Shown here one piece after another: positions 31,990 to 46,708 of a stretch of DNA of 64,000 nt (its first letter is position 1; every line of letters begins with the position of its first letter). This DNA comes from Agromyces cerinus subsp. cerinus (GTDB lineage Bacteria; Actinomycetota; Actinomycetes; Actinomycetales; Microbacteriaceae). The translations under genes and the position numbers were made by a program. A model generated the notes under the pieces. It saw only the letters and a program-made list of their open reading frames with translations. It was not told the DNA's origin and did not search any database. The stretch covers positions 1 to 64,000 of the forward strand of contig NZ_FSRJ01000002.1 in assembly GCF_900142065.1 (NCBI RefSeq), written 5' to 3'.

Positions 31990-33864
31990 ATGAAACGTAT
32001 GCGTGCTACACCAGCCCCCAGAAACGGGAAGGCGCGACGCCGGTTGTCCACCGTCGCCGCGGTCACCCTCGCGGCGTGTCTCGCGATCGGCCCGGCCGCG
32101 ACCGCGTTCGCGGCACCGGTCGTCGCTGAAGCGAGCCCTTCGGCGACGGAGAGCGCCGACGCCAAGACGTTGCGCATCGCGACGGCCGGCTTCGTCGACA
32201 CCTTCAACCCGTTCATCTCGATCTACCTGACGCCGACGAACATCATCCGGTACGTCTACGAGAGCCTCGTGCAGAACGACGCCGAAGACGGTTCCCCGAC
32301 CGCGGGCCTCGCAGAGGAATGGGAGGCCAGCCCCGACGGCATGACCTGGACCTTCACCCTGCACGAGGGCATGAAGTGGTCCGACGACGAGCCGATCACC
32401 TCGGCCGACGTGAAGTACACCTACGAGTCGATGATGAACGACCCGATGCTCGGCACCGCCAACGGCAACCTCGTGGCGAACTTCGAGAGCATCGAGACGC
32501 CCGACGACCTCACCGTCGTCATCAACCTCAAGACGCCGCAGGCGCCGAACCCCGGCACCGAGATCCCCGTGCTCCCCGAGCACATCTGGTCCGAAGTCGA
32601 CGATCCGACGACCTTCGCCAACGACGCCGACGTCGTGGGCTCCGGGCCGTACACGCTCGAGAGCTACTCGGCGAACCAGTCGATCATCCTCAAGGCGAAC
32701 CCCAACTTCTGGCGGGGCGCCCCCAAGATCGACGGCATCCAGTACATCTACTACACGAACTCCGACGCCCAGATCCAGGCGCTGCGCGCCGGCGAGGTCG
32801 ACCTCGTGACCGGGCTCACCGACACCCAGATGACGGCGCTCGAAGGCGAAGAGGGCATCACGACCCACGCCGGCACGGGCCGTCGCTTCACCTCGATCAG
32901 CGTGAACGCCGGAGCCGAGACGCCCGAGGGCGTCGCCTACGGCACCGGCAGCCCTGCCCTCAAGGAGCCCGCCGTGCGCGAGGCGATCCGCCTCGGCATC
33001 GACCAGGAGTCGCTGCTGAAGAACGTGCTGGGCGGCTACGGCGCTCCCGCCACGAGCTTCATCCCGATCGCGTTCGAGAAGTGGCACCTGCCCGACGACG
33101 ACGAGGCGATCGTGTCGTTCGATCCCGACGCCGCGATGGCCAAGCTCGATGACGCCGGCTGGGTCGCCGGCGCCGACGGCATCCGCGAGAAGGACGGGAA
33201 CCGACTCTCGATCCGCCTGCTCGCCGACGCGGAGGACATCGTCGAGATGTCGACCGCCGAGTACCTCGTGCCCTGGATGGCGAACATCGGCGTCGAGCTG
33301 AAGCTCGAGACCACCGACAGCGACACGATCTCGGACCGCACGGCGGTCAGCGACTACGACCTGTACTTCTCCGGGTGGAGCGTCAACCCCGACCCCGACT
33401 ACCAGCTCGGCATCAACCTGTGCTCCTCGCGTCCCGACGCCGAGGGCAACGGCGCCACGAGCCAGGACGGCTACTGCAACCCCGAGTTCGACGCCCTCTA
33501 CGCAGAGCAGCACTCGGAGCTCGACGAGGCCAAGCGCGCCGAGATCGTGCACGACATGCTGCGCATGCACTACGAGGACGTCGCGCAGATCACCCTCTGG
33601 TACGGCCAGTCGCTCGAGGCGTACCGCTCCGACCGCTTCACGGGCTTCACCACGCAGCCCGCCGACAACGGCATCATCGCGAACCAGGCCGGCTACTGGG
33701 GCTACTACACGGTGGAGCCCGTCGTCGACGAGGCTTCGTCGGCCGCTGAGCAGTCCGGCCCGGGTGCCGCGCTCTGGATCGGCCTCGGCGTGCTCGTCGT
33801 CGCCGCCGGTGTCGTGGCGATCGTGATCGTGCGACGGCGCAAGACCGCGGGCGACCGCGAGTAG
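31990..33864 (+). CDS. Oligopeptide ABC transporter substrate-binding protein (SBP_bac_5)
   Basis: A 624-residue extracytoplasmic solute-binding protein. The signal sequence (TVAAVTLAACLAIGPAATAF) has both a possible lipobox LAAC at 27-30 and an AFA-A cleavage site. The mature part fits family 5: an AGLAEEWEASPDGMTWTFTL stretch, VSFDPDAAMAKLDDAGW, and SGWSVNPDPDYQLGINL near the end. Unusually there is also a C-terminal membrane helix (LWIGLGVLVVAAGVVAIVIV) with a basic tail, which would anchor it. First gene of the importer operon; the next gene follows a hairpin at 33878-33914. Peptides are the likely cargo. Confidence 0.9.
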   Translation: MKRMRATPAPRNGKARRRLSTVAAVTLAACLAIGPAATAFAAPVVAEASPSATESADAKTLRIATAGFVDTFNPFISIYLTPTNIIRYVYESLVQNDAEDGSPTAGLAEEWEASPDGMTWTFTLHEGMKWSDDEPITSADVKYTYESMMNDPMLGTANGNLVANFESIETPDDLTVVINLKTPQAPNPGTEIPVLPEHIWSEVDDPTTFANDADVVGSGPYTLESYSANQSIILKANPNFWRGAPKIDGIQYIYYTNSDAQIQALRAGEVDLVTGLTDTQMTALEGEEGITTHAGTGRRFTSISVNAGAETPEGVAYGTGSPALKEPAVREAIRLGIDQESLLKNVLGGYGAPATSFIPIAFEKWHLPDDDEAIVSFDPDAAMAKLDDAGWVAGADGIREKDGNRLSIRLLADAEDIVEMSTAEYLVPWMANIGVELKLETTDSDTISDRTAVSDYDLYFSGWSVNPDPDYQLGINLCSSRPDAEGNGATSQDGYCNPEFDALYAEQHSELDEAKRAEIVHDMLRMHYEDVAQITLWYGQSLEAYRSDRFTGFTTQPADNGIIANQAGYWGYYTVEPVVDEASSAAEQSGPGAALWIGLGVLVVAAGVVAIVIVRRRKTAGDRE

Positions 33865-33877
33865 CGTTCTCGCACTG

Positions 33878-33914
33878 CCCGGTCGGGTGCCGCACCCCGC
33901 GGCATCCGACCGGG
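33878..33914 (+). terminator. Intercistronic hairpin after the binding-protein gene
   Basis: A 14-bp stem with one G-T pair (33878-33891 with 33901-33914) lies between the solute-binding protein and the first permease gene, with no T tract. Such hairpins commonly reduce read-through or protect the upstream mRNA so that the binding protein is made in excess. Confidence 0.6.
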
Positions 33915-33953
33915 CGACCGACGTCGGGCGCAGGAAGAAGGAGACGGAGCGCA

Positions 33954-34997
33954 ATGACAGACACGATCACCCCCGTGAACGCGGAGGTGCACGACGAGAA
34001 GCTCGCCGAGGAATCGCCGACGCGTTCCTCGTTCCTGGGCTACTTCGGCACCAAGCTCGGCGGGGCGCTCATCAGCCTCGTCATGGTCGTGCTGCTCGGC
34101 TTCTTCGCGTTCCGAGTGCTGCCGGGCGACCCGGTGCGGCGCATCGCGCAGGAACGCCCGATGAGCCCCGAGCAGATCGCGGAGCTCCGCAGGCAGTACG
34201 GCCTCGACAAGCCCGTCACGCAGCAGTTCCTCGACTACCTGGTCAACATCTTCACCGGCAACCTCGGCGAGAGTTACGTGTACCGCACCCCGGTGAGCGA
34301 GCTGATCGGGCAGTACCTCGGCCCGACCCTCCTGCTCACCGGCACCTCCGCGATCATCGCGATCGCACTCGGGCTGTGGCTCGGCCAGCGCGCTGCCTGG
34401 CGCAACGGCTCGCTCTTCGACAAGATCGCCACCGGCACCTCGCTCACCCTGTGGTCGGTGCCCACGTTCTGGCTCGCGCTGATCCTCCTCATGATCTTCG
34501 GCGGCACACTGCGCTGGTTCCCGACGGGCGGCATGGTCAGCCCCGGCGTCGAGCCGGGCACCTTCGACTACGTCGTCGACGTCGCCCGCCACATGGTGCT
34601 CCCCGTGGTCACGATGGTCGCGGTGGTCTTCGCCCAGTACCTCATGGTCATGCGCGCGTCGCTCCTCGAGGAGAAGTCGTCCGACTACCTGACGACCGCG
34701 CGGGCGAAGGGCCTGCGCGACGACCTCGTGCGTCGCCGGCACGCGGTGCCGAACGCGCTGCTGCCCACGGTCACCCTCGTCTTCATGCACATCGGCGGTC
34801 TCGTGGCCGGCGCCGTCACGGTCGAGACGGTCTTCTCCTGGCCCGGTCTCGGCAAGCTCACCTACGAGGCCATCAGCGGCCCCGACATGCCCCTGCTGCA
34901 GGGCACCTTCGTCGTCTTCTCGACGATCATCATCGTCATGAATCTCATCGCCGACCTCATCTATCGGCAGCTCGACCCGAGAGTGAGGCGCGCATGA
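33954..34997 (+). CDS. Oligopeptide ABC transporter permease (DppB/OppB type)
   Basis: A 347-residue permease. The N-terminal helix (LISLVMVVLLGFFAFRVLPG) leads into the conserved DPVRRI segment; EQIAELRRQYGLDKPVTQQF is typical of the DppB branch. The permease EAA-like loop is YLTTARAKGLRDDLVRRRHA, and about six helices are present. GGAGACGGAGCGCA precedes the ATG. Its stop overlaps the start of the second permease (ATGA). Confidence 0.9.
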   Translation: MTDTITPVNAEVHDEKLAEESPTRSSFLGYFGTKLGGALISLVMVVLLGFFAFRVLPGDPVRRIAQERPMSPEQIAELRRQYGLDKPVTQQFLDYLVNIFTGNLGESYVYRTPVSELIGQYLGPTLLLTGTSAIIAIALGLWLGQRAAWRNGSLFDKIATGTSLTLWSVPTFWLALILLMIFGGTLRWFPTGGMVSPGVEPGTFDYVVDVARHMVLPVVTMVAVVFAQYLMVMRASLLEEKSSDYLTTARAKGLRDDLVRRRHAVPNALLPTVTLVFMHIGGLVAGAVTVETVFSWPGLGKLTYEAISGPDMPLLQGTFVVFSTIIIVMNLIADLIYRQLDPRVRRA

Positions 34998-35920
34998 GCA
35001 CCACCGAACAGGCGCGGCCCGTCGCCCCGATGACGACCCGGCAGGTCGCGAGCCGCCGGCGCCGGGCGTCCGCCGCGAAGCTGTGGCGCGAGTTCCGCGC
35101 GAGCGCCTCGGGAATGTCGGGGCTGATCTTCCTCGGCGTCGTGATCCTCCTCGCGATCCTCGCCCCGGTCATCGCCGACCGCTCGATGCTCGACGTCACC
35201 CAGCTCACCGATCAGCCGCGCTTCGCGCCGCCGTCGTGGGAGCACCCGATGGGCACCGACCACCAGGGTCGCGAGTTGTGGGTGCGCATGATCTGGGGCG
35301 CTCGCACCTCGCTCCTCGTCGGCGTCGCCGCCACGGCGATGTCGATGATCATCGGCACCCTCGTGGGCATGGCCGCGGGCCACTTCACCGGGGTCGCGGG
35401 CGGCGTCATCATGCGATTCGTCGACTTCTTCCTCGTGCTGCCCTCGCTCGTGCTCGCCATCGTGCTGTCGTCGGTGCTGAGCCGCGGCGTGCTCACGATC
35501 GTGATCGCGATCGGCGTGACCTCATGGGCGGCCACCGCCAGACTCGTGAGAGCCCAGACACTCGCGGTCGAGGCCCGTCCGTACGTCGAGCGCTCCCAGG
35601 TGCTCGGCGCCGGGCACTGGCACATCATCGGCAAGCACCTCTTCCCCGCCGTGCTGCCGCTCGTGCTCGCCAACACGACGCTCACCGTCGGCTCGGCGAT
35701 CATCGCCGAATCGACGCTCGCCTTCCTCGGTCTCGGCGATCCCACGCAGCAGTCGTGGGGCACGATCCTGAAGGACTCGATGGACGTCTCGGCCGCGACG
35801 AGCGGCTACTGGTGGTACGTCGTCATCCCCGGTCTCGCGATCGTGCTCGTGGTGCTCGCGTTCACCCTGGTCGGGCGCACCTTCGAAGCCATCGTGAACC
35901 CGACCCTCAGGAGCCGTTGA
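34994..35920 (+). CDS. Oligopeptide ABC transporter permease (DppC/OppC type)
   Basis: A 308-residue permease with an extended basic N-terminus typical of DppC. It has the GTDHQGRELWVRMIWGARTS segment after helix 1 and the LVRAQTLAVEARPYVERSQV EAA loop, followed by FPAVLPLVLAN. ATG 34994 overlaps the DppB-like stop by 4 bases. The frame is open far upstream, but only as an overlap with the preceding gene. It pairs with the DppB-like permease as the import channel. Confidence 0.9.
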   Translation: MSTTEQARPVAPMTTRQVASRRRRASAAKLWREFRASASGMSGLIFLGVVILLAILAPVIADRSMLDVTQLTDQPRFAPPSWEHPMGTDHQGRELWVRMIWGARTSLLVGVAATAMSMIIGTLVGMAAGHFTGVAGGVIMRFVDFFLVLPSLVLAIVLSSVLSRGVLTIVIAIGVTSWAATARLVRAQTLAVEARPYVERSQVLGAGHWHIIGKHLFPAVLPLVLANTTLTVGSAIIAESTLAFLGLGDPTQQSWGTILKDSMDVSAATSGYWWYVVIPGLAIVLVVLAFTLVGRTFEAIVNPTLRSR

Positions 35921-35922
35921 GC

Positions 35923-37647
35923 ATGCCCGATCTCGTTTTCGACGACGTTTCCATCACCTATCGCACGGCCGCGGCGCGAGGTCGCGGCGACATCGCCGCC
36001 GTGCGGAACGTGAGCCTCTCGCTGCCGGCCGGCGGCACGCTCGGCATCGCCGGCGAGTCGGGCTCCGGCAAGTCGACGCTCGCGATGAGTGCACTGCGCC
36101 TGCTTCCCGACAACGCCGTGATCGACGGCCAGGTGCGCGTCGGCGACCGGAGCGTCGCCGACCTGAGCTTCGGCGAGCTGCGCGCCCTGCGCTGGTCGGA
36201 GGTCGCGATCGTCTTCCAGGGGGCGATGCACTCGCTGAACCCCGTGCGCACCGTCGGTCAGCAGATCATCGAGGCGCTCGAGCTGCACGTGAAGGACGGC
36301 TGGCGCACCGCCGAGGCCCGCAAGGCGCGCCTCGCGGAGCTGATGGACCAGGTCGACCTGCCGATCGCGAAGGCGGCGTCGTACCCGCACGAGCTCTCGG
36401 GCGGCCAGAAGCAGCGCATCATGATCGCGATGGCGCTCGCGTGCGAGCCCGACATCATCGTCGCCGATGAACCGACGACCGCGCTCGACGTCATCGTCCA
36501 GGGCCAGATCCTCGAGGTCGTGAAGGACCTCGTGACCCGACGGGGCATCTCGCTCCTCATGATCAGCCACGACCTCTCGGTGCTCGCCACCGCCTGCGAG
36601 CGCATCGCCGTCATGCGCAACGGCGAGCTCGTCGAGGTCGGCGAGTCGCAGCAGATCTGCACCGAGCCGCGCGAGGCGTACACGAAGCAGCTCGCCGACG
36701 CCTTCCCGACGATCGGCGACCCGGCTTCGCGGCTGAAGCCGGTCACGCGTCGCACCGACTCGGCCAGGACCGGCTCGATCGACGCGATCGACGCAGCGGA
36801 TGCCTCGGCGCCCGCGCGCACGGCGGTCGAGGGCGACGCGTGGTCGACCGGCGAGGTGCTGCTGGAGGCGCGCAATCTCAGCGTGACGTTCCGCTCGCGA
36901 GGCAAGAGCGTTCGGGCGGTGCGCGGGGTCGACCTCGCGTGCCGCCAGGGCGAGATCGTCGCGCTCGTCGGGCAGTCGGGTTCGGGCAAGACCACGCTCG
37001 CCCGCACGCTCCTCGGTCTCGAGGCGCCCGACCAGGGCGGGCAGGTGCTCTTCCGCGGCAAGCCGCTCGGGCGTTCGACGAAGCGGCTCCGCGAGTTCCG
37101 TCGCCAGGTCCAGCTCATCCTGCAGGACCCGTCGGCCGCCCTGAACCCGAAGCTCAGCGTCTACGAGTCGGTCGCCGAGGGGCTCCGCATCCAGCGCTAC
37201 CCGGGCGACGAACGCGCCCAGGTCGCCGCGAGCCTCGAGAACGCCGAGCTGATGCCGCCCGAGCACTTCTTCGAGGCCATCCCGCACGAGCTCTCGGGCG
37301 GGCAGCGCCAGCGCGTCGTGATCGCGGGCGCCCTCGCGATGAACCCGCAGATGCTCATCGCCGACGAGCCGGTCGCCTCGCTCGACGCCTCGGCGCGAGG
37401 CGAGATCCTCGCACTCATGCTCCGCCTGCGCGACGAGCTCGGCCTCTCCGCGCTCGTCATCACGCACGACCTCGGACTCGCATGGAACATCGCCGACACG
37501 GTCGCCGTGATGTACCACGGCGAGATCGTCGAGCGGGGTGCCACCGAGACGGTGCTCCTCGACCCCCAGCACGAGTACACCAAGAAGCTCCTCGCCGCGG
37601 CGCCGAAGATCGTGGGGCGCGAGGGCGTGCTCGCGACGGCCCGGTGA
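35923..37647 (+). CDS. Fused double ATPase of the peptide ABC transporter (DppD-DppF type)
   Basis: A 574-residue protein with two complete ABC domains. The first has Walker A GESGSGKST, signature LSGGQKQRIM and Walker B IIVADEPTTALD. The second has GQSGSGKTT, LSGGQRQRVV and MLIADEPVASLD. A variable, Ala/Asp-rich linker sits at about residues 270-305. One polypeptide replaces the usual DppD and DppF pair. AGGAG lies 11 bases before ATG 35923. It completes the importer with the two permeases and the binding protein. Confidence 0.92.
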   Translation: MPDLVFDDVSITYRTAAARGRGDIAAVRNVSLSLPAGGTLGIAGESGSGKSTLAMSALRLLPDNAVIDGQVRVGDRSVADLSFGELRALRWSEVAIVFQGAMHSLNPVRTVGQQIIEALELHVKDGWRTAEARKARLAELMDQVDLPIAKAASYPHELSGGQKQRIMIAMALACEPDIIVADEPTTALDVIVQGQILEVVKDLVTRRGISLLMISHDLSVLATACERIAVMRNGELVEVGESQQICTEPREAYTKQLADAFPTIGDPASRLKPVTRRTDSARTGSIDAIDAADASAPARTAVEGDAWSTGEVLLEARNLSVTFRSRGKSVRAVRGVDLACRQGEIVALVGQSGSGKTTLARTLLGLEAPDQGGQVLFRGKPLGRSTKRLREFRRQVQLILQDPSAALNPKLSVYESVAEGLRIQRYPGDERAQVAASLENAELMPPEHFFEAIPHELSGGQRQRVVIAGALAMNPQMLIADEPVASLDASARGEILALMLRLRDELGLSALVITHDLGLAWNIADTVAVMYHGEIVERGATETVLLDPQHEYTKKLLAAAPKIVGREGVLATAR

Positions 37648-37654
37648 TCCGCGG

Positions 37655-38764
37655 GTGACCGTTCACGAGAACGCTCCGGTGTCGGGCCTGCCCTGGATCG
37701 TCGTCACGGGCGACCGCGAGACGGTCTTCCGCGAGCTCGGCGCGCACTTCGCCGAGCGCATCCGCGACATCCGCTCGCACGCCGACGCCCAGTGGTCGGC
37801 GCTCATGACCCGTGTCGAGCAGGAGGTCGTGGGCGAGCGCATGCGGCGCATCGAGGCGTCCACGCGCCGGCTCTGCCCGGTCGAGTCGCGCGAGCTCGAC
37901 CTCCTCGCCGAGGGCGCGGGCGTGCCCGCGTTCGACCTGTGGGTCTACAACCTCCGCGGCGACCTCGGCCGGGACGGCACCGGGTGCAGCGACGTGTCAC
38001 TCGCGACATCCGATGCCCTCGTCGTCGGCCACAACGAGGACGGCGCAGGCGATTCGGCCGACGACGTCTGCCTCGTCACCCTCGTGATCGAGGGCGACCC
38101 GAGCATGACGGTCGTCTGGTATCCGGGCTTCCTGCCCGCCAACTCCTTCGTCGCCACCGAGGCGGGCACGGTGTGGGGGCTCGACCACCTGCCCGTCGTC
38201 GAACCCGATGAGAACGGGGCCGGACGCCACTTCGTCGCCCGGCACGCACAGCGGAGCCGCTCGGGTCGCGAGGCGATCGAACGCGTCCGGTCCGTGCCGT
38301 GCGCCGGCGGGTTCTCGTTCAACATCGGCGACCGCGAGACCGGTCGCGCCGTCATGATCGAGAACGCTGCGGGCATGGTCGTGACGACGGATGCCTCGGC
38401 CGACGCCCCCTGCCTCTGGCACACGAACCACCTGCGGTTCGTCGGGGAGCCGGGGCCCGGCCTGCAGCCGGCGGCGGGCGACGAGTCGCTCGTCGAGAGC
38501 CGCACGCGCGGTGAGCGACTGAGCGGGCAGCTCGACGAACGGCAGGCCGGGCGGCAGGGCGCCGTGCTCGACGCGGAGTCGGTGTTCGCGGCCCTCCGGT
38601 CCGACGGCGTGCTGAACCGCTCGACCGGCCTCTGGACCTTCACGACGACGGTGGCCGATCTGGCGAACGACCGCATCATCGTGCAGGGGCGCGGCGAGCC
38701 GACGACCTTGGGGCTCGGTGCCTTCGCGGCCGGCCGAGTGCTCGAGACCGAGGCGCGGGCATGA
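37655..38764 (+). CDS. Peptidase C45-type Ntn hydrolase (acyl-CoA:6-APA acyltransferase family)
   Basis: A 369-residue protein of the N-terminal-nucleophile hydrolase fold. The likely self-processing Cys is C111 in GTGCSDVSL, followed by the family's DALVVGHNEDG. Later blocks are GTVWGLDHLPV, FSFNIGDRETGRA and CLWHTNHLRF. Family members include fungal isopenicillin-N acyltransferase and bacterial enzymes acting on amides, beta-lactams or acyl-amino acids. No signal peptide, so it would act on imported compounds. GTG 37655 starts 7 bases after the ATPase stop, so it belongs to the importer operon. Confidence 0.82.
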   Translation: MTVHENAPVSGLPWIVVTGDRETVFRELGAHFAERIRDIRSHADAQWSALMTRVEQEVVGERMRRIEASTRRLCPVESRELDLLAEGAGVPAFDLWVYNLRGDLGRDGTGCSDVSLATSDALVVGHNEDGAGDSADDVCLVTLVIEGDPSMTVVWYPGFLPANSFVATEAGTVWGLDHLPVVEPDENGAGRHFVARHAQRSRSGREAIERVRSVPCAGGFSFNIGDRETGRAVMIENAAGMVVTTDASADAPCLWHTNHLRFVGEPGPGLQPAAGDESLVESRTRGERLSGQLDERQAGRQGAVLDAESVFAALRSDGVLNRSTGLWTFTTTVADLANDRIIVQGRGEPTTLGLGAFAAGRVLETEARA

Positions 38765-38777
38765 AGGGGGCGCGGGC

Positions 38778-39605
38778 ATGACGCGGGGCGGAACGGGGGA
38801 GCGCATGGAGTTCGCGACGGGATCGGGCATCACCTGGTCGGCCAAGGCGGTCGACCTCGACTCGGGCCACGTGCTCTTCGAGCAGGGCGAGGACCTCGCC
38901 CTCGACACGGCGAGCATCGGCAAGGTGTTCCTGCTGCACACGGTGCTCGAGCTCGAGCAGCGCGGCGAGCTGCGTCTCGACGAGCCGGTGACTCGCCGCC
39001 CGAGCGAGTGGATGGACAACTCGGGACTCTGGTACCTGCTGCAGGCGGACACGCTCAGCATCTACGACCTCTGCGCCCTCATCGGCGCGGTGAGCGACAA
39101 CGCGGCCACGAACACGATGTGCCGCCGGGTCGGGCTCGATGCGGTGCACGCGTCGACCGCGGCCCTCGGCTACACCCGGAGCTCGCTCGACGACATCGTG
39201 CGCTGGCCCATTCCGACGGGCTTCCCTCCGAACCTCTCGACCGGCAGTGCCCGAGAGCTCACGGACTTCGTCGCGCGCGTCGCGAAGAACGAGGTGCTGA
39301 CCGAGGCCGGGTGCGACACCCTGCGCCGGTGGCTCGGCGCCGGCATGGACTGCTCGATGGTGGCGGCGGCCTGGGGCCTCGACCCGCTCGCGCACTACTT
39401 CTACGACCGCGACATCTGGATGTGGAACAAGACCGGCACCACGAGCCGCGTGCGCGGCGACATCGGCGTGGCGATGTCGCCGAAGCGCCGCGTGGCGTAC
39501 TCGGTGCTCGCGAACTGGGAGCGGGGCTCGGATCACCGCGACGAGGCGCTCGCGACGATGCGCGAGGCCGGCGACGTCATCCGCGACCATCTCCTGCACG
39601 GCTGA
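38778..39605 (+). CDS. Class A beta-lactamase-like serine hydrolase
   Basis: A 275-residue serine hydrolase with three active-site motifs of class A beta-lactamases and penicillin-binding enzymes: S46-x-x-K49 (TASIGKV), S106-D-N108 and K218-T-G. The Glu-x-x-Leu-Asn motif that deacylates beta-lactams is not recognisable, and there is no signal peptide. An intracellular esterase or D-stereospecific peptidase therefore fits better than resistance. ATG 38778 is preceded by GAAGGGGG; ATG 38805 with GGGGGAG is also possible. It lies between the C45 and C39-like genes in the importer operon. Confidence 0.8.
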   Translation: MTRGGTGERMEFATGSGITWSAKAVDLDSGHVLFEQGEDLALDTASIGKVFLLHTVLELEQRGELRLDEPVTRRPSEWMDNSGLWYLLQADTLSIYDLCALIGAVSDNAATNTMCRRVGLDAVHASTAALGYTRSSLDDIVRWPIPTGFPPNLSTGSARELTDFVARVAKNEVLTEAGCDTLRRWLGAGMDCSMVAAAWGLDPLAHYFYDRDIWMWNKTGTTSRVRGDIGVAMSPKRRVAYSVLANWERGSDHRDEALATMREAGDVIRDHLLHG

Positions 39606-39618
39606 GACGGGGAATCGG

Positions 39619-40860
39619 ATGGCACGGCATGTGCAGTTCAGTGAGGTGCGCGGGGCGACCGGGTTCTCCCGGGGAACGTTCGAGGGCACCGTCGTCGACG
39701 AGGCGGCTCGCCTGAGGCCGGCGCCTGCGGGCCATGCCGCTTCGGCGCCGCCGCCGCACCGGTGGACCTCCGCCGCCGTCGAGGTGCCGTTCCCGGCGAC
39801 CGAGGCGATCCTGTCGTGGCACGCGATCACCCCGCCGGGCACGTGGATCGAACTCGAGCTCAGCGTCCGGAACGCCGACGGGTCGTGGACCGCCTGGTTC
39901 GTGCTCGCCCGGTGGACGGAGCGCGACGATGCAGCGGGGGGCATCCGGCGCACGACCGTTTCCGGGCAGCGTGACGCGGATGCATCCGTACACGCCGACA
40001 CCTTCGTCGCCGCCCAGGGTCGGGCGTTCACCGCGTACCGGCTTCGCGTGACCTTCGCCCGCGGTGACGAGGTCGAAGCTGAAGTCGATGCCTCGCTCGT
40101 GATGGTGGGGGCGATGGTCTCGGCGATCGACGACCCGACGCCCGAGCCTCAGCCATTCCACGACGGGCACGGGCATGGGAACGACGACCACGCCGACCAC
40201 GCCGACCACGACGACCACGCCGACCGGCTCGGCGCCCGCGGCATGGCGCTCGACGTGCCGCGGTTCTCGCAGCAGCTGCACCGCGGAGCGCGCGTGGACC
40301 TCGGCGGGGGCGGGGAGGCCTGGTGCTCTCCGACCTCGACCGCCATGGTGCTCGGCTTCTGGGACCGACTGCCTTCGGACGACGCCCTGACCGGCATCGA
40401 GGCGCCGAACGGCGACCCCCAGGTCGTCTGGGCCGCCGCCGGGTGCTACGACCACGGGTACGCCGGCACGGGCAACTGGGCGTTCAACGCCGCATTCGCC
40501 GCACGGAACGGGCTCGAGTCGTTCGTCACCCGGTTGCGCTCGCTCGACGAGGCCGAACGGTTCATCGCCGCGGGCATCCCGCTCATCGCCTCGGTCGCGT
40601 TCACTCGTGACGAGCTCCCCGAGGCCGGGTACGTCACCGAGGGGCATCTGCTCGTCATCGCCGGGTTCACGGTCGATGGCGACGTCGTCGTGAACGACCC
40701 TGCGGCGCCCGAGAACACGGCCGTTCGCCGGAGCTATCCGCGCGCGGCATTCGAACGCGCCTGGTTGCGAAGCGCCGGCGGCAGCGGCGGCGTGGTCTAC
40801 GTGATGCGCCCCGCCGACGTGCGCCTGCCGGCCGTGCCCGGTGAGGAACGCAACTGGTGA
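39619..40860 (+). CDS. C39-like cysteine peptidase with His-rich linker
   Basis: A 413-residue protein. Residues 1-175 form a beta-rich N-terminal domain of unknown type. Residues 181-203 are a His/Asp/Gly-rich linker with ten His. The C-terminal half is a peptidase_C39_2-like papain fold with C236 (AWCSPTSTAM), H343 (EGHLLVIAGF) and D360 (VVNDPAAP) as likely catalytic triad. No signal peptide, so it is probably cytoplasmic. GACGGGGAAT precedes the ATG. Last gene of the importer operon and only 7 bp from the convergent M20 gene. The role of the His-rich part, perhaps metal binding, is a guess. Confidence 0.8.
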   Translation: MARHVQFSEVRGATGFSRGTFEGTVVDEAARLRPAPAGHAASAPPPHRWTSAAVEVPFPATEAILSWHAITPPGTWIELELSVRNADGSWTAWFVLARWTERDDAAGGIRRTTVSGQRDADASVHADTFVAAQGRAFTAYRLRVTFARGDEVEAEVDASLVMVGAMVSAIDDPTPEPQPFHDGHGHGNDDHADHADHDDHADRLGARGMALDVPRFSQQLHRGARVDLGGGGEAWCSPTSTAMVLGFWDRLPSDDALTGIEAPNGDPQVVWAAAGCYDHGYAGTGNWAFNAAFAARNGLESFVTRLRSLDEAERFIAAGIPLIASVAFTRDELPEAGYVTEGHLLVIAGFTVDGDVVVNDPAAPENTAVRRSYPRAAFERAWLRSAGGSGGVVYVMRPADVRLPAVPGEERNW

Positions 40861-40867
40861 GCGGGGC

Positions 40868-42004
40868 TCAGCCGGCGAGCACCGCCGTGAGCAGCTCGAT
40901 GCGCGCTCGCAGCGACGACAGCAGCAGGTGCTCGGTCACCGCGTGGGCGCCGCCGCCGCGGGGACCGAATCCGTCGATCGTCGGGACACCGAGCGAGCCG
41001 ACCAGGTTCGTGTCGCCGGCTCCGGCGGCGGGCCGGCCGCTCGCCGACTGCTCCAGCGCGGATGCCGCGCGCCCGACCTCCTCGAGCAGCGCCTCGTCGC
41101 CGACGCCCGCCTGCCAAGCCGGGCGGCTCGTCAGCACGACCGCGCGCACGACCGCGCCCGAACGGATCGGTTCGAGCCGGGCGAGCGCGTCGAGCACGTG
41201 GCGCTCCGATCCGCCGTCGACGAAGCGCAGCCCGATCTCGGCGGAGGCCGCGTCGGGCACCACGTTCGCCCTCGCGCCGCCCGAGACGGTGCCGACGTTG
41301 CAGAGCACCGGCGTGGTCGCGGAGGCCTCGGCCACGATCTCGCGCACGACGAGCAACTGGTCGACGAGCTCGTCGATGGCCGAGACGCCGTTGTCGGGGT
41401 CGAGCGCCGCGTGCGCCGCCCTGCCCTCGACCTCGAGCCGGAGCCGCGTGCTGCCCGCGCGCCCGACCTTGAATGCGCCGTCGGGGTGCGGCGACTCGAA
41501 GCCGATGACGCCGGCGACGCCGTCGAGCGCCGCGCGCACGAGCTCCTGCGAGGTGGGCGAGCCGACCTCCTCGTCGCAGTTGACGAGGATCCGCACGGTG
41601 CGCCTCGGGCGATTCCGCAGGATCTCGAGCGCCGTGAGCATGATCACGAGCCCGCTCTTCATGTCGAAGACGCCCGGGCCGCGCACGACATCGCCGTCGA
41701 CCGACCACGGCACGTCGCCGGTCAGCGATCCGTGGTCCCACACCGTGTCGGAGTGGCCGAGCAGCAGGAGCGGCGCCGCATCACCAGTGCCGGGAACGTC
41801 GATGACCAGGTGCGTGCCCGCCTCCGTGACGACGGCCCGCACCTCGCTCGCGAGCGGCTCGAACCACTCCGTGAGCAACCGGGCGATGCGCGCGCTCGCC
41901 GCCGCGTCGAACGAGGGGGTCTCGATGCGGACGAGCTGCTCGAGCCGCTCGAGCACCGTGTGCCACGCGGCATCCACCGCTGCCCCGACCTCTGCTGGCG
42001 TCAT
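40868..42004 (-). CDS. M20 family metallopeptidase (CPG2/N-acyl-amino-acid deacylase-like)
   Basis: A 378-residue di-zinc amidohydrolase. Likely metal ligands are H84 (LGHSDTVW, with D86), D114 (GPGVFDMKSG), E145-E146 (NCDEEVGS) and a late His in GGGAHAVTEH. The pattern is closest to glutamate carboxypeptidase/CPG2-type enzymes, which cleave N-acyl amino acids or C-terminal Glu. In NSAR-containing operons elsewhere, an M20 member is the N-succinyl-L-amino-acid desuccinylase. ATG 42004 has AAGGAGCG upstream. Divergent from the GNAT/racemase operon, with which it shares an operator region. Confidence 0.86.
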   Translation of the reverse strand: MTPAEVGAAVDAAWHTVLERLEQLVRIETPSFDAAASARIARLLTEWFEPLASEVRAVVTEAGTHLVIDVPGTGDAAPLLLLGHSDTVWDHGSLTGDVPWSVDGDVVRGPGVFDMKSGLVIMLTALEILRNRPRRTVRILVNCDEEVGSPTSQELVRAALDGVAGVIGFESPHPDGAFKVGRAGSTRLRLEVEGRAAHAALDPDNGVSAIDELVDQLLVVREIVAEASATTPVLCNVGTVSGGARANVVPDAASAEIGLRFVDGGSERHVLDALARLEPIRSGAVVRAVVLTSRPAWQAGVGDEALLEEVGRAASALEQSASGRPAAGAGDTNLVGSLGVPTIDGFGPRGGGAHAVTEHLLLSSLRARIELLTAVLAG

Positions 42005-42021
42005 GTCGCTCCTTGTCGAAG

Positions 42022-42034
42022 ATATGAAGCATAT
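42022..42034. promoter_or_regulatory. Island palindrome, site 2 (ATATGAAGCATAT)
   Basis: ATATG-AAG-CATAT ends 18 bp upstream of the M20 start codon. It matches the consensus ATAYGAAKCRTAT shared with sites at 31888 and 42109, in a position to repress M20 transcription. Confidence 0.65.
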
Positions 42035-42094
42035 GGTAGCAACACCGTCGAGCAATGGGCGAAGAATTCCGGGCGAAGAACGCGCTGATTTCGC

Positions 42095-42131
42095 TGGACG
42101 AGTCAATTATATGATTCGTATAATGAACAGC
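42095..42131 (+). promoter_or_regulatory. Sigma-70-type promoter of the GNAT/racemase operon, probably leaderless
   Basis: TGGACG (42095-42100), an 18-bp spacer, and a perfect TATAAT (42119-42124). Seven bases after TATAAT comes GTG 42132, an in-frame start of the GNAT gene, so transcription and translation would begin at the same base. No convincing Shine-Dalgarno sequence exists for the alternative starts. Confidence 0.7.
42109..42121. promoter_or_regulatory. Island palindrome, site 3 (ATATGATTCGTAT)
   Basis: The complement reads ATACGAATCATAT, matching sites at 31888 and 42022. Extended to 42106-42124 it is a 19-bp near-palindrome (ATTATATGATTCGTATAAT) that includes the TATAAT -10 element, so a bound protein would block this promoter. 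Confidence 0.68.
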
Positions 42132-42899
42132 GTGACTGAAGCACAGGCGCGAGACCGCGGGGTGGGCGAGCCGCTGACCACCCATGAACTCTCGAGGTAC
42201 GAAGACTTCCAGCAGGCGAGTGCGCTGTACCGACGCGTCTTCGGCTACTCCTCGGAGGAACTCGCGCTGAACAGCAACCTGCTGAGCGCCCTCGTGCGGA
42301 ACGGCGGGTCGGCGGTCGGCGTGCGTGGGGCCGACGGCGAGCTCATCGGCTTCGCCTACGGATTCCTCGGGTCCGATGAGTCGGGCGTCTTCCACTACTC
42401 CCAGGCCGCGGTCGTCGAGCAGCACGCCCAGGGCCGCGGCATCGGGCGCCTGCTCAAGCTGCGCCAGCGGGAGGTCGTGCTCGCCTCGGGGGTCTCGACG
42501 ATGCGCTGGGCGTTCGACCCCGCACTGGGGCGCAACGCACACTTCAACTTCGACATCCTCGGCGCGCACAGCGCCGCCTTCGTGCGCGACTACTACGGGC
42601 GACCCGGCACCGACCGGCTGCTCGTCGACTGGCCGCTGGCGGCAGGCGCCGACCCCTACGCCGAGGTTCGCGCCGAGCGTCCGCCCGCCTCGCTCGCGGG
42701 TGCGGAGCCCGGCGCGGCGATCGCGCACGGCGCCGGCCGGTGGGTGGTCGTCCCGACCGGCGAAGCGGGCACGGCCCGGCTGCACGACACCATGCAGCAC
42801 CTGCACGAGCAGGGCTTCGTGCTCGTGAGCTGCCAGCGCGTCGATGCGGATGTCTCGGCCTACCTCGCCGTGCCGGCGGCAGGCGGGCGGCTCCGATGA
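42132..42899 (+). CDS. COG3375-like GNAT acyltransferase (putative D-amino-acid N-succinyltransferase)
   Basis: A 255-residue GNAT. The acyl-CoA motif A is VEQHAQGRGIGRLLKLRQ. The block MRWAFDPALGRNAHFNFDIL then GAHSAAFVRDYYG is the hallmark of COG3375 proteins, which accompany N-succinylamino-acid racemases. In Geobacillus, such a GNAT succinylates D-amino acids before racemisation. GTG 42132 is chosen from the promoter geometry; ATG 42123 and ATG 42111 are alternatives. Its stop overlaps the next start (ATGA). The family assignment is strong; the donor and acceptor are inferred from context. Confidence 0.82.
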   Translation: MTEAQARDRGVGEPLTTHELSRYEDFQQASALYRRVFGYSSEELALNSNLLSALVRNGGSAVGVRGADGELIGFAYGFLGSDESGVFHYSQAAVVEQHAQGRGIGRLLKLRQREVVLASGVSTMRWAFDPALGRNAHFNFDILGAHSAAFVRDYYGRPGTDRLLVDWPLAAGADPYAEVRAERPPASLAGAEPGAAIAHGAGRWVVVPTGEAGTARLHDTMQHLHEQGFVLVSCQRVDADVSAYLAVPAAGGRLR

Positions 42900-43609
42900 C
42901 GATGCAGGCACGCAGCGACGAACAGCTCGAGCACGATCAGCTCGAGCACGAACTCAACCGCACGCTGAGTTCGCCCGAGGCCCGGTTCGGTGTGCGCATG
43001 CGCAAGAACCTCTCGGCCGAGGGGCTCCAGGACCGCGTGATGGAGACCGAGGCGGCCTCGCTCGAGAGCACGTTCGCGCACCTCCGCGCGAGCGCGGCCG
43101 TGCCGCAGGCGGCCGCGATCATCCTCGGTTCGCGTCGCAAGTTCATCGCGGGCGAGGGCAAGTCGGCGGCCTACGCCGCGCTTCTGAACGCCGACCTCGC
43201 CGCAACCGTGCCGAACGTCTACCTGATCGACGGGCACGCACTGAACCCGCTCGACGTGCTCAGCGACGTGCGCTCGACCGACGTGCTCGTGCTCTTCTCG
43301 CTGCGCCGCTACCGTCGCGAGACGGTCACGCTCGGCCGGCTCTTCAGCGAGGCGGGCGGTCAACTCGTCGTGTTCACCGACAGCGAGGCGGCGCCGCTCG
43401 CGCCCTTCGCGACCTCGCTCATCGTGCTGCAGACCGGATCCGCATCGTATGCCGACTCGCCGACCTCGGTCGCCGCCGTCTGCCACCTGCTCAGCACGCT
43501 CACGACCGCGAGCGCCAAGGGCGCCCGTCGACGGCTGGCCACGCGCGACGAGCTGAACCACGAGATGAACCTGTACTTCGACCACCGGAACGACGAGGAC
43601 GCACCATGA
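42896..43609 (+). CDS. SIS-domain protein, RpiR type without the HTH
   Basis: A 237-residue protein whose body matches the C-terminal SIS (sugar isomerase) domain of RpiR/MurR regulators: AAIILGSRRKFIAGEGKSAA, then STDVLVLFSLRRYRRETVTL and GGQLVVFTDSEAAPLAPF. RpiR proteins normally carry an HTH domain of about 75 residues first. Here only a 55-residue polar helix (like the RpiR linker) precedes the SIS domain. So it probably cannot bind DNA alone; it may sense a metabolite or work with another regulator. It overlaps both neighbouring genes by 4 bases. The role is open. Confidence 0.75.
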   Translation: MTMQARSDEQLEHDQLEHELNRTLSSPEARFGVRMRKNLSAEGLQDRVMETEAASLESTFAHLRASAAVPQAAAIILGSRRKFIAGEGKSAAYAALLNADLAATVPNVYLIDGHALNPLDVLSDVRSTDVLVLFSLRRYRRETVTLGRLFSEAGGQLVVFTDSEAAPLAPFATSLIVLQTGSASYADSPTSVAAVCHLLSTLTTASAKGARRRLATRDELNHEMNLYFDHRNDEDAP

Positions 43610-45630
43610 GGGTCACCCGCATCGAACTCTTCCAGGTGAGCCTGCCCCTCGTGCACGGCTTCCAGACGAGTTCGCACCGCAAGACCGGCCTCGAGCACAT
43701 CCTCGTGCGATTCACCGACGACACCGGCGCCACCGGATGGGGCGAGATCGCCTCGCCGAGCGACCCGTACTTCACGGCCGAGAACACCGAGACGGCCTGG
43801 TCGATCGCGACCCGCTACCTCGTGCCGCTCGTGCTCGACGCCGAGTGGGGGCACCCGGGCGAGGTCGACGCCCTCTGGGCGAAGATCCGCGGATACGAGT
43901 TCACGAAGGCGGGCTTCGCCGGCGCCGCGTGGGACCTCTGGTCGACCTCGCGCGGCATCCCGCTCGCCGAGGCGCTCGGCGGCACCCGCACCGAGGTCGC
44001 CGCCGGAGTTTCGCTCGGCATCGAACCGACCATCGACGAACTGCTCGCACAGGTCGCGGCGCAGCTCGACGCCGGCTACGCCCGGGTGAAGCTGAAGATC
44101 GCCTCGGGCTGGGATCTCGACCCCGTGCGCGAGGTGCGCCGCGCGTTCCCCGACCTGCTGATGCACGTCGACGCGAACGGTGCCTACCCGAGCGACGACG
44201 ACACGATCCAGCGGCTGGCGGCATTCGACGCCGAGTCGCTCAGCATGATCGAGCAGCCGTTCGCGCCCGGCGACTTCGTCGGCCACGCGCGCCTGCAGGA
44301 GCGCATCGAGACGCCCGTCTGCCTCGACGAGTCCATCGTGCGGCTCGACGACCTGCGAACGATGATCGCGCTCGGCTCGGGCCGGGTGCTCAACATCAAG
44401 GTCTCCCGCATGGGCGGTCTGACGGTCGCCAAGGCGGCGCACGACCTCGCCGTCGAGGCGGGCATCCCGGTGTGGTGCGGCGGCATGCACGAGTTCGGCA
44501 TCGGGCGAGCCGCGAACCTCGCCCTCTCCTCCCTCGAGCACTTCAGCTACCCCTCGGATGTCTCAGGGTCCGACAAGTACTACGCACGCGACGTGATCGT
44601 GCCGGCCGTGACCGCGCGCGACGGCGTCGTGAACGTGCCGACCGGGCCCGGCATCGGCTTCGAGGTCGACCTGGCCTGGATCGAGCAGAACCTCGAGCGC
44701 AGCTTCGATTCCGATGCGCGCGCCTCGCCGGACGACACGCGGGCCGGGGCATCCGCAGCCGTGCTCGTCATGGTCGACGACGCGGCAGAGGGCGGGCCGG
44801 TCGTGGAGACCCCGTTCCGCCGTGCCGACGTCGACGCGCCGCAGCTGGACGTGCGCGACCTGAGCGCGACCCGCGGCGACGGCATCTTCGAGACGCTCGG
44901 CGTGCACCGCGGCCGTCCGCAGGCGATCGAGGAGCATCTGCAGCGCTTCGCCCGCTCCGCCGCGCTGCTCGACCTGCCCGCGCCGAAGCTCGACGTGTGG
45001 CGCGACGCCATCCACGCCGCGATCGCGGCGCACGACAGCTCCGCCGACGGCTTCGTCAAGTTCGTGATGACGCGCGGCGTCGAGGGAGCCGGCGTACCGG
45101 TGGGCTGGGTCTACCTCGCCGATGCCGCCGACTTCACCGTGCCCCGCGAGCAGGGCGTCGCCGTCGTCACGCTCGACCGCGGCTACCGGCACGACGTCGC
45201 CCGCACCTCGCCGTGGCTGCTGCAGGGGGCGAAGTCGCTGTCGTACGCGGTCAACAAGTCGGTGCTGCGGGAGGCGGCACGCCGCGGCGCCGCCGACGTC
45301 ATCTTCACGAGCATCGACGGCTTCGTGCTCGAAGGGCCCTCCTCGACGGTGCTGCTGCGGTTCGGCGATCGCTTCGTCTCCCCGCCGAGTGACGACGGCA
45401 TCCTCGCCGGAACGACGCTCGCGAGCGCGATCGAGATGCTCGCCGCGCTCGGCCACGAGACGCACCGCGAGCCCGTGCGCGTCGAACAGCTCGCTTCGGC
45501 CGACGACATCTGGCTGCTCTCGAGCACCCGCTCGGCCGTCGCGGTCGCAGAGCTCGACGGCGTGCCGCGAGCCTTCGACGCCGAGCTGACGACCCGGCTC
45601 CAGACCCACCTGATCTCCCGAGACCACTGA
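43606..45630 (+). CDS. N-acylamino-acid racemase (NSAR/OSBS)-class IV PLP enzyme fusion
   Basis: A 674-residue fusion. Residues 1-370 are an enolase-superfamily NSAR/o-succinylbenzoate synthase: catalytic K162-x-K164 (VKLKIASG), metal ligands D189 (HVDANGAY), E216 (IEQPF) and D241 (CLDESI), and K265 (LNIKVSRMGG). Residues about 385-674 are a fold-type IV PLP enzyme like D-amino-acid aminotransferase or ADC lyase: GDGIFETLGV, K543 in GAKSLSYAVN, E576 in VLEGPSS, and ILAGTTLASAIEML. No stop or frameshift separates them. With GNAT and M20 genes alongside, conversion of D- to L-amino acids is likely, with transamination of D-amino acids by the second half. Confidence 0.85.
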   Translation: MRVTRIELFQVSLPLVHGFQTSSHRKTGLEHILVRFTDDTGATGWGEIASPSDPYFTAENTETAWSIATRYLVPLVLDAEWGHPGEVDALWAKIRGYEFTKAGFAGAAWDLWSTSRGIPLAEALGGTRTEVAAGVSLGIEPTIDELLAQVAAQLDAGYARVKLKIASGWDLDPVREVRRAFPDLLMHVDANGAYPSDDDTIQRLAAFDAESLSMIEQPFAPGDFVGHARLQERIETPVCLDESIVRLDDLRTMIALGSGRVLNIKVSRMGGLTVAKAAHDLAVEAGIPVWCGGMHEFGIGRAANLALSSLEHFSYPSDVSGSDKYYARDVIVPAVTARDGVVNVPTGPGIGFEVDLAWIEQNLERSFDSDARASPDDTRAGASAAVLVMVDDAAEGGPVVETPFRRADVDAPQLDVRDLSATRGDGIFETLGVHRGRPQAIEEHLQRFARSAALLDLPAPKLDVWRDAIHAAIAAHDSSADGFVKFVMTRGVEGAGVPVGWVYLADAADFTVPREQGVAVVTLDRGYRHDVARTSPWLLQGAKSLSYAVNKSVLREAARRGAADVIFTSIDGFVLEGPSSTVLLRFGDRFVSPPSDDGILAGTTLASAIEMLAALGHETHREPVRVEQLASADDIWLLSSTRSAVAVAELDGVPRAFDAELTTRLQTHLISRDH

Positions 45631-45640
45631 GGACGGCGAC

Positions 45641-46708
45641 ATGCAGTACGAGCGATTCGAGATCCCGGTCTTCGACGGCCACAACGACCTGCCGTGGACG
45701 GCGCGCGCGGATAACGGCTACTCGGTCGAGGGACTCGACGGCACCGAGCCGACCCTCCTCCACACCGACATCCCGAAGCTGCGCCACGGCGGCGTCGCCG
45801 GACAGTTCTGGTCGGTGTGGGTCGACTCGGCGATCGAGGGGGCCGCGGCCGTGCGCGCGACGCTCGAGCAGATCGACTTCGTGCACCGCATGGCCGCCCG
45901 CTACCCCGAGACGTTCGAGCTCGCGACGACCGCCGAGACGGCGCGACGCGCGATGGGCGCGGGCAGGATCGCCTCGATGATCGGCGTCGAGGGCGGCGGC
46001 CAGATCGACGGCTCGCTCGCGGTGCTGCGCGAGTACGCCCGGCTCGGTGCGCGCTACATGACGCTCACCTGGACGTCGACGAGCGACTGGGCGGACTCTG
46101 CGACCGATGAGGCGCGGCACGGCGGGCTCACCGAGTTCGGCCGTGAGGTCGTGGCGGAGATGAACCGCATCGGCATGCTCGTCGACCTCGCGCACGTCTC
46201 GGTCGCGACGGCCGATGCGGCGCTCGACACCTCGACCCGGCCGACGCTCGTCAGCCATTCGAGTGCCGCGGCCCTGAACCCGCATCCGCGGAACATGCCC
46301 GACCGCATCATCCGCCGGGTCGCCGACGGCGGCGGCGTCTACATGGTCACCTTCGTGCCGTCGTTCCTCACGGCAGGCCGCCGCGACTGGGTCAACGCGG
46401 GGGAGACCGGACCGAAGCCGCCCGTCACCGTCGCCGACGCGGCCGACCATGTGGAGCACGTGCGCAACGTCGCGGGCATCGACGGTGTCGGCCTCGGCGG
46501 CGACTACGACGGCACCGACGACATGCCCGACGGGCTCGGCGACGTCTCGGGCTACCCGGTGCTGTTCGCCGAGTTGGCCCGCCGCGGGTGGACGGAGGCC
46601 GAGCTGCGCAAGCTCGGCACCGAGAACGTGCTGCGCGTGGTCGCGGCATCCGATGACGACTACCTGGGATTCACGGGTGCCGGCGCCAGCCGACCCGTCG
46701 AGATGTGA
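45641..46708 (+). CDS. Membrane-dipeptidase family (M19) peptidase
   Basis: A 355-residue di-zinc dipeptidase of the renal dipeptidase family. Ligands are H14-x-D16 (DGHND), E117 (GVEGGG), H185 (LAHVS) and H206 (SHSSA), and the GVGLGGDYDG block is present near residue 285. M19 enzymes are unusual in accepting D-amino acids at the C-terminal side of dipeptides. Bacterial ones are cytoplasmic; no signal peptide here. GGACGGCGAC precedes ATG 45641, 10 bases after the fusion gene. It would release D-residues that feed the racemase/PLP enzyme. Confidence 0.9.
   Translation: MQYERFEIPVFDGHNDLPWTARADNGYSVEGLDGTEPTLLHTDIPKLRHGGVAGQFWSVWVDSAIEGAAAVRATLEQIDFVHRMAARYPETFELATTAETARRAMGAGRIASMIGVEGGGQIDGSLAVLREYARLGARYMTLTWTSTSDWADSATDEARHGGLTEFGREVVAEMNRIGMLVDLAHVSVATADAALDTSTRPTLVSHSSAAALNPHPRNMPDRIIRRVADGGGVYMVTFVPSFLTAGRRDWVNAGETGPKPPVTVADAADHVEHVRNVAGIDGVGLGGDYDGTDDMPDGLGDVSGYPVLFAELARRGWTEAELRKLGTENVLRVVAASDDDYLGFTGAGASRPVEM

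What the first reader, a model, noticed from the sequence alone, without database searches (positions are those of the whole stretch)
43606..45630. Racemase (NSAR/OSBS) fused to a fold-type IV PLP enzyme
One uninterrupted 674-codon frame joins an enolase-superfamily N-acylamino-acid racemase (K162/K164, D189, E216, D241, K265 all present) to a D-amino-acid aminotransferase/ADC-lyase-like domain (K543, E576). The two chemistries would give D-amino acids two exits: racemisation after N-acylation, or direct transamination to the oxo acid. I know of each family singly but not of this fusion. All catalytic residues that I can locate are kept, so neither half looks dead.
Basis: partly seen in the sequence, partly recalled or inferred. 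Interest (0 to 1): 0.85.

Follow-up and report, generated by a model that had tools for sequence, protein, structure and literature searches.

The report
Fused D-amino-acid racemase and transaminase
A few soil bacteria of the genus Agromyces have joined two neighbouring genes of a probable D-amino-acid salvage operon into one protein, which carries a racemase for acylated amino acids at one end and a D-amino-acid transaminase-like enzyme at the other.

Summary
Window 43606-45630 is one open frame of 674 codons: an NSAR/OSBS-type enolase half (about 1-360), a disordered linker, and a fold-type-IV PLP half (about 404-674). It is not an artefact: 4 of 60 genomes of the genus carry it, and dN/dS is low in both halves among the three closest copies. 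In relatives (Pseudoclavibacter, Microbacterium, Cryobacterium, Cellulomonas and others) the two genes are separate neighbours in the same operon. The fusion therefore most likely arose by loss of the stop codon between adjacent genes, once.

The operon holds a peptide ABC transporter, peptidases, an M20 hydrolase, a GNAT acyltransferase, a SIS protein, the fusion, an M19 dipeptidase and a GATase. M20-GNAT-NSAR matches the known N-succinylation route from D- to L-amino acids. The PLP half is closest to CpuTA1, a transaminase with measured D-alanine and (R)-amine activity, and keeps 15 of 17 inspected active-site residues. I judge it a bifunctional D-amino-acid salvage enzyme; activity of either half is inferred. 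The halves should share no direct intermediate, because acylation lies between them.

Menaquinone or folate roles are unlikely: the genome has a dedicated MenC and a separate aminodeoxychorismate-lyase-like gene. New variant of a known kind.

The parts
43606..45630 (+). Fusion gene, 674 codons: NSAR/OSBS-type racemase + fold-IV PLP enzyme
43606..44685 (+). N-terminal NSAR domain (residues about 1-360); K162xK164, D189, E216, D241, K265, R268
   Evidence: aligned with Amycolatopsis NSAR/OSBS 1sja; TIGR01928 272.6 bits over cut-off 200.65
44686..44814 (+). Linker (residues about 361-403), variable in length among fusions. Residue 382 aligns by eye with the start of the separate Pseudoclavibacter PLP protein; the nearest in-frame ATG (codon 389) has no Shine-Dalgarno match
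   Evidence: (373-423 pLDDT <50)
44815..45627 (+). C-terminal fold-type-IV PLP domain (residues about 404-674); R423, K485, K543, Y547, E576
42896..43609 (+). SIS-domain protein (no helix-turn-helix model matched), ATGA overlap with the fusion
42111..42899 (+). GNAT N-acyltransferase (start uncertain), predicted D-amino-acid N-acyltransferase
   Evidence: 9 of 9 orthologues match PF00583 at relaxed E-value, best 4.3e-8; the window's own copy is below the curated cut-off (18.2 of 20.7 bits)
40868..42106 (-). M20 metallo-hydrolase (start uncertain), predicted N-acyl-L-amino-acid deacylase
45641..46708 (+). M19 dipeptidase
   Evidence: PF01244 359.9 bits
46705..47457 (+). Class-I glutamine amidotransferase-like protein
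39619..40860 (+). C39-like peptidase-domain protein
38718..39605 (+). Beta-lactamase2/DD-peptidase-like serine hydrolase (start uncertain)
37643..38764 (+). C45 autoproteolytic acyltransferase/hydrolase (start uncertain)
31990..37647 (+). Peptide ABC transporter: SBP_bac_5 (31990-33864), two permeases (33954-34997, 34994-35920), double ATPase (35923-37647)

Best explanation
A bifunctional enzyme of a D-amino-acid salvage operon. Shown by sequence: the fusion, its active-site residues, the operon, and the separate neighbouring genes in relatives. Inferred: the chemistry and the pathway order. Peptides containing D-residues, for example from cell walls, are imported by the ABC transporter and cut by the peptidases, including the M19 dipeptidase. 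Route A: the GNAT acylates the free D-amino acid (probably with succinyl-CoA), the N-terminal half racemises N-acyl-D to N-acyl-L, and the M20 enzyme releases the L-amino acid. Route B: the C-terminal half transaminates D-amino acids to 2-oxo acids, with 2-oxoglutarate or pyruvate as acceptor. The fusion formed when the stop codon between two adjacent genes of one operon was lost. It fixes their ratio and keeps them together. No intermediate passes directly between the two halves.
For: Single frame and both domains. N-half closest to solved NSAR/OSBS with catalytic residues kept, including R268 aligned with R266, the residue changed to Q in 7s8w. C-half closest to CpuTA1 (264.7 bits) then Rv0812 (182.4 bits). 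CpuTA1 has measured D-Ala/2-oxoglutarate and (R)-amine activity (PMC5131300, passages); Rv0812 is a lyase and D-transaminase (PMC8105722, passages). Of 17 CpuTA1 positions inspected, the window keeps 15; E140 is A and V272 is T. Of the 80 named loci kept, 28 have the PLP gene adjacent and separate, 1 fused, 51 none seen (two of these 51, L110 and L163, hold under 1.5 kb downstream); GNAT in 78 of 80, M20 in 72 of 80. In 21 of 21 PLP loci with M19 downstream (the fused one included) the PLP part lies between NSAR and M19. In 18 of the 51 without PLP, a D-aminoacylase-type gene lies within the fetched flank, against 0 of the 29 with PLP (closest PDB chains N-acyl-D-glutamate deacylase and D-aminoacylase). 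The fusions are one clade on both trees (NSAR 95/92, in 93% of 200 bootstrap trees; PLP 100/97). dN/dS is low among close copies.
Against: No activity of any member of this operon was found. The PLP gene is absent from most of the loci seen, so it is accessory. TIGR01928 is named o-succinylbenzoate synthase, not racemase. dN/dS of the PLP half reaches 0.68 against the most distant copy. The GNAT is identified at fold level only: the window's copy is below the Pfam cut-offs, no PDB chain is found with it alone, and a profile gives only weak matches (best E 0.0082); its acyl donor and D-preference are guesses. In the AlphaFold2 monomer model residues 523-548, which include K543, have pLDDT below 50. 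Internal translation starts in the fusion are not excluded: GTG codons with weak Shine-Dalgarno matches lie in or after the linker.
Confidence: 0.65

Rival explanations
1. The PLP half mainly makes D-Glu or D-Ala for the cell wall (as proposed for Rv0812), and the operon recycles its own wall; salvage of foreign D-amino acids is secondary.
For: Rv0812 couples p-aminobenzoate and D-Ala/D-Glu supply (PMC8105722, passages); a Peptidase_S66 (LD-carboxypeptidase) gene lies in the related operon of G035 and near several others.
Against: No PLP gene seen in 51 of the 80 named operon loci, and the fused form is absent from 56 of 60 genomes of the genus; a separate PLP homologue is in the own genome and widespread in the genus; the operon is of uptake and degradation type.
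Confidence: 0.15
2. The PLP half acts on a non-amino-acid (R)-amine or another substrate, as CpuTA1 does in vitro, and its tie to the racemase is through a shared peptide or antibiotic source.
For: CpuTA1 converts (R)-1-phenylethylamine and (R)-1-aminotetralin; positions V272 and E140 of CpuTA1 are T and A here.
Against: Neighbour genes are peptide and amino-acid enzymes; the R51* and K117 equivalents, which in CpuTA1 point at a possible carboxylate, are kept.
Confidence: 0.12
3. OSBS fused to aminodeoxychorismate lyase, i.e. menaquinone plus folate synthesis.
For: Best NCBIfam names are o-succinylbenzoate synthase (over cut-off) and aminodeoxychorismate lyase (below cut-off).
Against: Dedicated MenC at C7:618231 (470.6 bits, cut-off 288), against 49.8 bits for the fusion. 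A separate PLP gene near C5:934.6 kb passes NF005886 (267.1, cut-off 253), while the fused half gives 238.4; it fails the two sister models. No menaquinone or folate gene among the operon genes scanned.
Confidence: 0.03
4. Assembly artefact or frozen read-through with one dead half.
For: Rarity; dN/dS 0.68 of the PLP half against the most distant copy.
Against: Four genomes, different linker lengths, low dN/dS in both halves among close copies, inspected catalytic residues kept.
Confidence: 0.02

Closest known systems
[quoted passage not shown] Deinococcus 1r0m)
   Same: Fold, KxK motif, metal ligands, second lysine, R266 equivalent; GNAT and M20 genes nearby as in the D- to L-amino-acid route of Sakai et al. 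2006 (title seen in a reference list; its content recalled)
   Different: Carries a PLP enzyme on its C-terminus; its substrate range is unknown
CpuTA1/MgiTA1 fold-IV transaminases (PDB 5k3w, PMC5131300)
   Same: PLP lysine, phosphate and carboxylate-facing residues kept; CpuTA1 is the closest solved relative
   Different: CpuTA1 was solved as a stand-alone 313-residue chain; here the enzyme is tethered to a racemase and belongs to its operon
Rv0812 (6q1q), lyase/D-transaminase
   Same: Next closest solved relative; R26 equivalent kept
   Different: R115 and R185 of Rv0812 align with D and S here; CpuTA1 lacks them too
D-aminoacylase (1m7j) and N-acyl-D-glutamate deacylase (3gip)
   Same: A relative lies after NSAR in other actinobacteria
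   Different: Hydrolase, not a transaminase; none found in this operon

Membership tests
NSAR/OSBS subfamily of the enolase superfamily | KxK plus second lysine bases and D/E/D metal ligands | tested here: met
   K162/K164, D189, E216, D241, K265
NSAR/OSBS subfamily of the enolase superfamily | Family profile over curated cut-off | tested here: met
   TIGR01928 272.6 over 200.65 bits
NSAR (racemase rather than OSBS) | Second-shell arginine R266 | tested here: met
   R268 aligned; 7s8w carries Q there; the role of R266 is known to me from a paper title only
NSAR (racemase rather than OSBS) | N-acylamino-acid racemase activity | not testable with these tools
   needs assay
NSAR/GNAT/M20 D- to L-amino-acid pathway | GNAT acyltransferase and M20 deacylase beside NSAR | tested here: met
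   GNAT by its orthologues; GNAT 78 of 80, M20 72 of 80 named loci
Fold-IV D-transaminase, CpuTA1-like | PF01063 and the CpuTA1 active-site residues | tested here: met
   15 of 17 inspected residues identical; same side of the PLP tree as CpuTA1, but with long-branch warnings
Fold-IV D-transaminase, CpuTA1-like | Transamination of D-amino acids | not testable with these tools
   needs assay
Canonical DAAT (TIGR01121) | Curated cut-off 277.45 bits | tested here: not met
   56.3 bits
Aminodeoxychorismate lyase PRK07849 (NF005886/7/8) | Curated cut-offs 253/278/273 bits | tested here: not met
   238.4/227.9/248.5 bits
MenC of the PRK02901 type (NF002782) | Curated cut-off 288 bits | tested here: not met
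   49.8 bits; another locus of the genome scores 470.6

The most novel reading that the evidence does not exclude
The fusion is a stereo-inversion hub. The PLP half gathers amino groups from many D-amino acids onto one D-amino acid (D-Glu or D-Ala). The neighbouring GNAT acylates that compound, and the tethered racemase half inverts it, possibly inside a complex with the GNAT, so that a narrow racemase can serve a broad D-amino-acid diet.
Probability: 0.2. Interest if true: 0.65.

Novelty: new variant of a known kind. Interest (0 to 1): 0.47.

Why it matters
It is a clear gene-fusion (Rosetta-stone) link between two enzyme families that had no obvious partnership, and it shows how stand-alone neighbours become one enzyme. 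It suggests a physiological context, D-amino-acid salvage, for promiscuous NSAR/OSBS enzymes and for CpuTA1-type transaminases, which were found in a search for biocatalysts (PMC5131300, passages). After NSAR some lineages have a transaminase gene and others a D-aminoacylase-type gene. That makes a testable prediction about which D-compounds each lineage uses.

Tried and rejected
Rejected: sequencing artefact; menaquinone/folate role; recent copy of the genus's stand-alone PLP gene (the tree places the fused domains outside that 18-row clade); fusion in Pseudoclavibacter sp. 13-3 (G191), suspected from equal open-frame lengths but shown to be two open frames parted by stops. Led nowhere: PDB search with the GNAT alone (no match) and with its profile (weak); Foldseek, whose 50 listed rows are all enolase-superfamily proteins and so say nothing on the C-half; Pfam on genes beside the stand-alone PLP gene, no folate gene; the Shine-Dalgarno comparison, which is weak evidence because several separate PLP genes (L084/L107, L085/L100, L145) show no match either. 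Paper searches for a printed description: searches list only PMC7431475, whose passages name engineered fusions of other enzymes; one search lists three papers that I did not open; none has a title on this fusion. Not resolved: how often the separate PLP gene joined or left the operon (at least 6 changes of the 'adjacent' label forced by well-supported branches of the NSAR tree; gene transfer untested). Divergent fusions could be missed: one search kept 80 of 247 loci, and searches used E <= 1e-110 on samples of 396 and 394 genomes.
Full report
OBSERVATION. Window 43606-45630 (+) is one frame of 674 codons. The start ATG overlaps the stop of the upstream gene and has AGGA 6 nt before it. By eye, residue 382 aligns with the start of the separate Pseudoclavibacter PLP protein; the nearest in-frame ATG, codon 389, has no Shine-Dalgarno match, nor have its counterparts in the other three fusions. 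Some in-frame GTG codons have weak matches (codon 400 in the window), so internal starts are not excluded. Pfam finds MR_MLE_C at 146-355 and Aminotran_4 at 426-649, both far over cut-off. NCBIfam gives TIGR01928 (o-succinylbenzoate synthase) over cut-off for the N-half and aminodeoxychorismate lyase PRK07849 models below cut-off for the C-half.

NOT AN ARTEFACT. One search covered 60 genomes of the genus (150 asked for). Four carry the fusion: G000 (own), G034 (94%), G045 (90%) and G005 (69% and 61% for the two halves) (sequences). Two more (G035, G020) have an NSAR gene of about 60% identity after a SIS gene with no PLP gene found after it (the G020 contig ends 1.5 kb downstream). Linkers differ in length and composition. 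Nei-Gojobori dN/dS (NSAR half, PLP half) is 0.20 and 0.11 (window-G034), 0.20 and 0.23 (window-G045), 0.21 and 0.16 (G034-G045), but 0.36 and 0.68 (window-G005); for the linker it is 0.23, 0.43, 0.38 and 0.90. The G005 figures are less comfortable; dS may be underestimated in such GC-rich genes.

N-HALF. The closest solved proteins are the Amycolatopsis and Deinococcus NSAR/OSBS enzymes; in Foldseek a Thermus homologue ranks first, with TM-score 0.96 by target length for it and most of the NSAR chains listed. K162/K164, D189, E216, D241 and K265 fall on K161/K163, D189, E214, D239 and K263 of the Amycolatopsis chain (my reading of the alignment; which of these are catalytic there is recalled). 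R268 aligns with R266; 7s8w carries Q there and is described as R266Q. That R266 helps determine racemase specificity I know only from the title of Truong et al. 2021, seen in a reference list.

C-HALF. The closest solved chain is CpuTA1 (5k3w, 264.7 bits), then Rv0812 (6q1q, 182.4 bits). In the passages read of PMC5131300, CpuTA1 transaminates D-alanine with 2-oxoglutarate and accepts (R)-amines, L-alanine is not accepted, and the active-site residues are listed. [quoted passage not shown] Of 17 CpuTA1 positions inspected, the window keeps 15 (E140 is A, V272 is T). Of the three Rv0812 trap arginines only R26 is kept; the others align with D and S, and CpuTA1 lacks them too. So the half resembles CpuTA1 more than Rv0812. 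Among the other operon PLP rows a few positions vary (T58 is V in L145 and S in L105/L146; K117 is R in L126).

OPERON. The order is: peptide ABC transporter, C45, beta-lactamase2-like, C39-like, M20 on the other strand, GNAT, SIS, fusion, M19, GATase. GNAT/SIS, SIS/fusion and M19/GATase overlap by 4 nt, and fusion and M19 are 10 nt apart. The GNAT has no Pfam match at E <= 0.001; scanned at a relaxed E-value, 9 of 9 orthologues match PF00583 (best 4.3e-8), while the window's own copy stays below the curated cut-offs. GNAT + NSAR + M20 is the set of the route in Sakai et al. 2006 (title seen, content recalled).

ROSETTA STONE. Of 398 family genomes sampled (its match list is cut at about 270 bits), 19 have a listed NSAR match at 54% or more, and all 19 were inspected: 1 fused (own), 6 with a separate PLP gene directly after NSAR (G121, G129, G180, G191, G243, G289), 12 without. 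In the named-genome scan (best 80 of 247 loci) 28 are adjacent and separate, 1 is fused (Root81), and 51 show none, two of these 51 with under 1.5 kb downstream. The adjacent ones include Microbacterium, Pseudoclavibacter, Leifsonia, Cryobacterium, Glaciihabitans, Cellulomonas, Gordonia amarae and Propionibacterium cyclohexanicum. In 21 of 21 PLP loci with M19 downstream, the fused one included, the PLP part lies between NSAR and M19. In the order sample (396 genomes, 5 with a match at E <= 1e-110) one more adjacent pair appears (G673; a stop lies inside the match); G534 and G560 matched in the NSAR part only and were not inspected further. In the class sample (394 genomes, 18 with a match at that threshold) no match other than the own one spans both halves.

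HISTORY. The four fusions form one clade on the NSAR tree (95/92, 96 rows, 93% of 200 bootstrap trees) and on the PLP tree (100/97, 66 rows), so one fusion event suffices. On the NSAR tree their neighbours are Pseudoclavibacter (adjacent genes) and Acidipropionibacterium (no PLP gene). The adjacent state needs 8 changes there, at least 6 forced by starred branches, so the PLP gene joined or left the operon repeatedly. On the PLP tree the fused domains lie outside the clade of 18 stand-alone homologues of the genus; long branches, Rv0812 above all, make its deeper order unsure.

THE SLOT AFTER NSAR. In named loci without a PLP gene, a D-aminoacylase-type amidohydrolase is found in the fetched flank in 18 of 51 (in 17 downstream on the same strand, in L156 on the other), against 0 of 29 with PLP. 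Over all rows, duplicates included, it is 19 of 64 against 1 of 39; the one exception lies 8.4 kb away on the other strand, beyond the flank of its named twin. A DcuC-like transporter gene accompanies it in 14 of those 19. The closest solved relatives of the one member searched are N-acyl-D-glutamate deacylase and D-aminoacylase. This supports a D-amino-acid role for the operon family.

MECHANISM. Shown: sequence, residues, operon, gene pairing. Inferred: D-residue peptides are imported and cut; free D-amino acids are either acylated (GNAT), racemised (N-half) and deacylated (M20), or transaminated (C-half). The substrate of the racemase is acylated, while the transaminase needs a free amino group. 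Direct channelling between the two halves is therefore not expected; equal dosage and co-location are the likely gains. The AlphaFold2 monomer model (mean pLDDT 81.4, pTM 0.61, 48-row alignment) has a low-confidence linker at 373-423 and a weak stretch at 523-548 that holds K543, so it gives no reliable mutual placement.

ALTERNATIVES. Menaquinone: a dedicated MenC scores 470.6 bits elsewhere, the fusion 49.8. Folate: the stand-alone PLP gene passes one of three lyase cut-offs (267.1 over 253), the fused half none. Wall D-amino-acid supply and amine transamination remain possible.

NOVELTY. Both families are known, and so is the route (recalled). I found no description of the fusion in the held library (passages of PMC7431475), which lacks most subscription journals. 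I call it a new variant of a known kind.

Noticed in passing
window 42896-43609: SIS-domain protein in which no helix-turn-helix model was matched; a SIS match lies beside NSAR in 71 of 80 named loci. It looks like the sensor part of an RpiR regulator without its DNA-binding part (recalled comparison).
   Followed up: partly
L047 6229-8021 (own genome, C8 near 49-51 kb): A second NSAR (43%) with a GNAT (39%) before it, downstream of a uricase-domain gene.
   Followed up: partly
L108 (same genome as L087): Pseudoclavibacter caeni has two PLP genes in tandem after NSAR, the second on a long branch.
   Followed up: no
L162, L168: Cellulomonas citrea and a MAG have a related PLP gene near NSAR but on the opposite strand.
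   Followed up: no
L138: In Microbacterium sp. Se63.02b the PLP, M19 and GATase matches are broken into pieces, perhaps frameshifts in the assembly.
   Followed up: no
L134 7150-10300 and similar loci: DcuC-like transporter plus D-aminoacylase-type gene after NSAR in Streptosporangium, Nonomuraea, a Kribbella, Saccharopolyspora and others.
   Followed up: partly
L041 3449-6495: The unfused operon of G035 carries prolyl-oligopeptidase and LD-carboxypeptidase (S66) genes where the fused one has C45, beta-lactamase2-like and C39-like genes.
   Followed up: no
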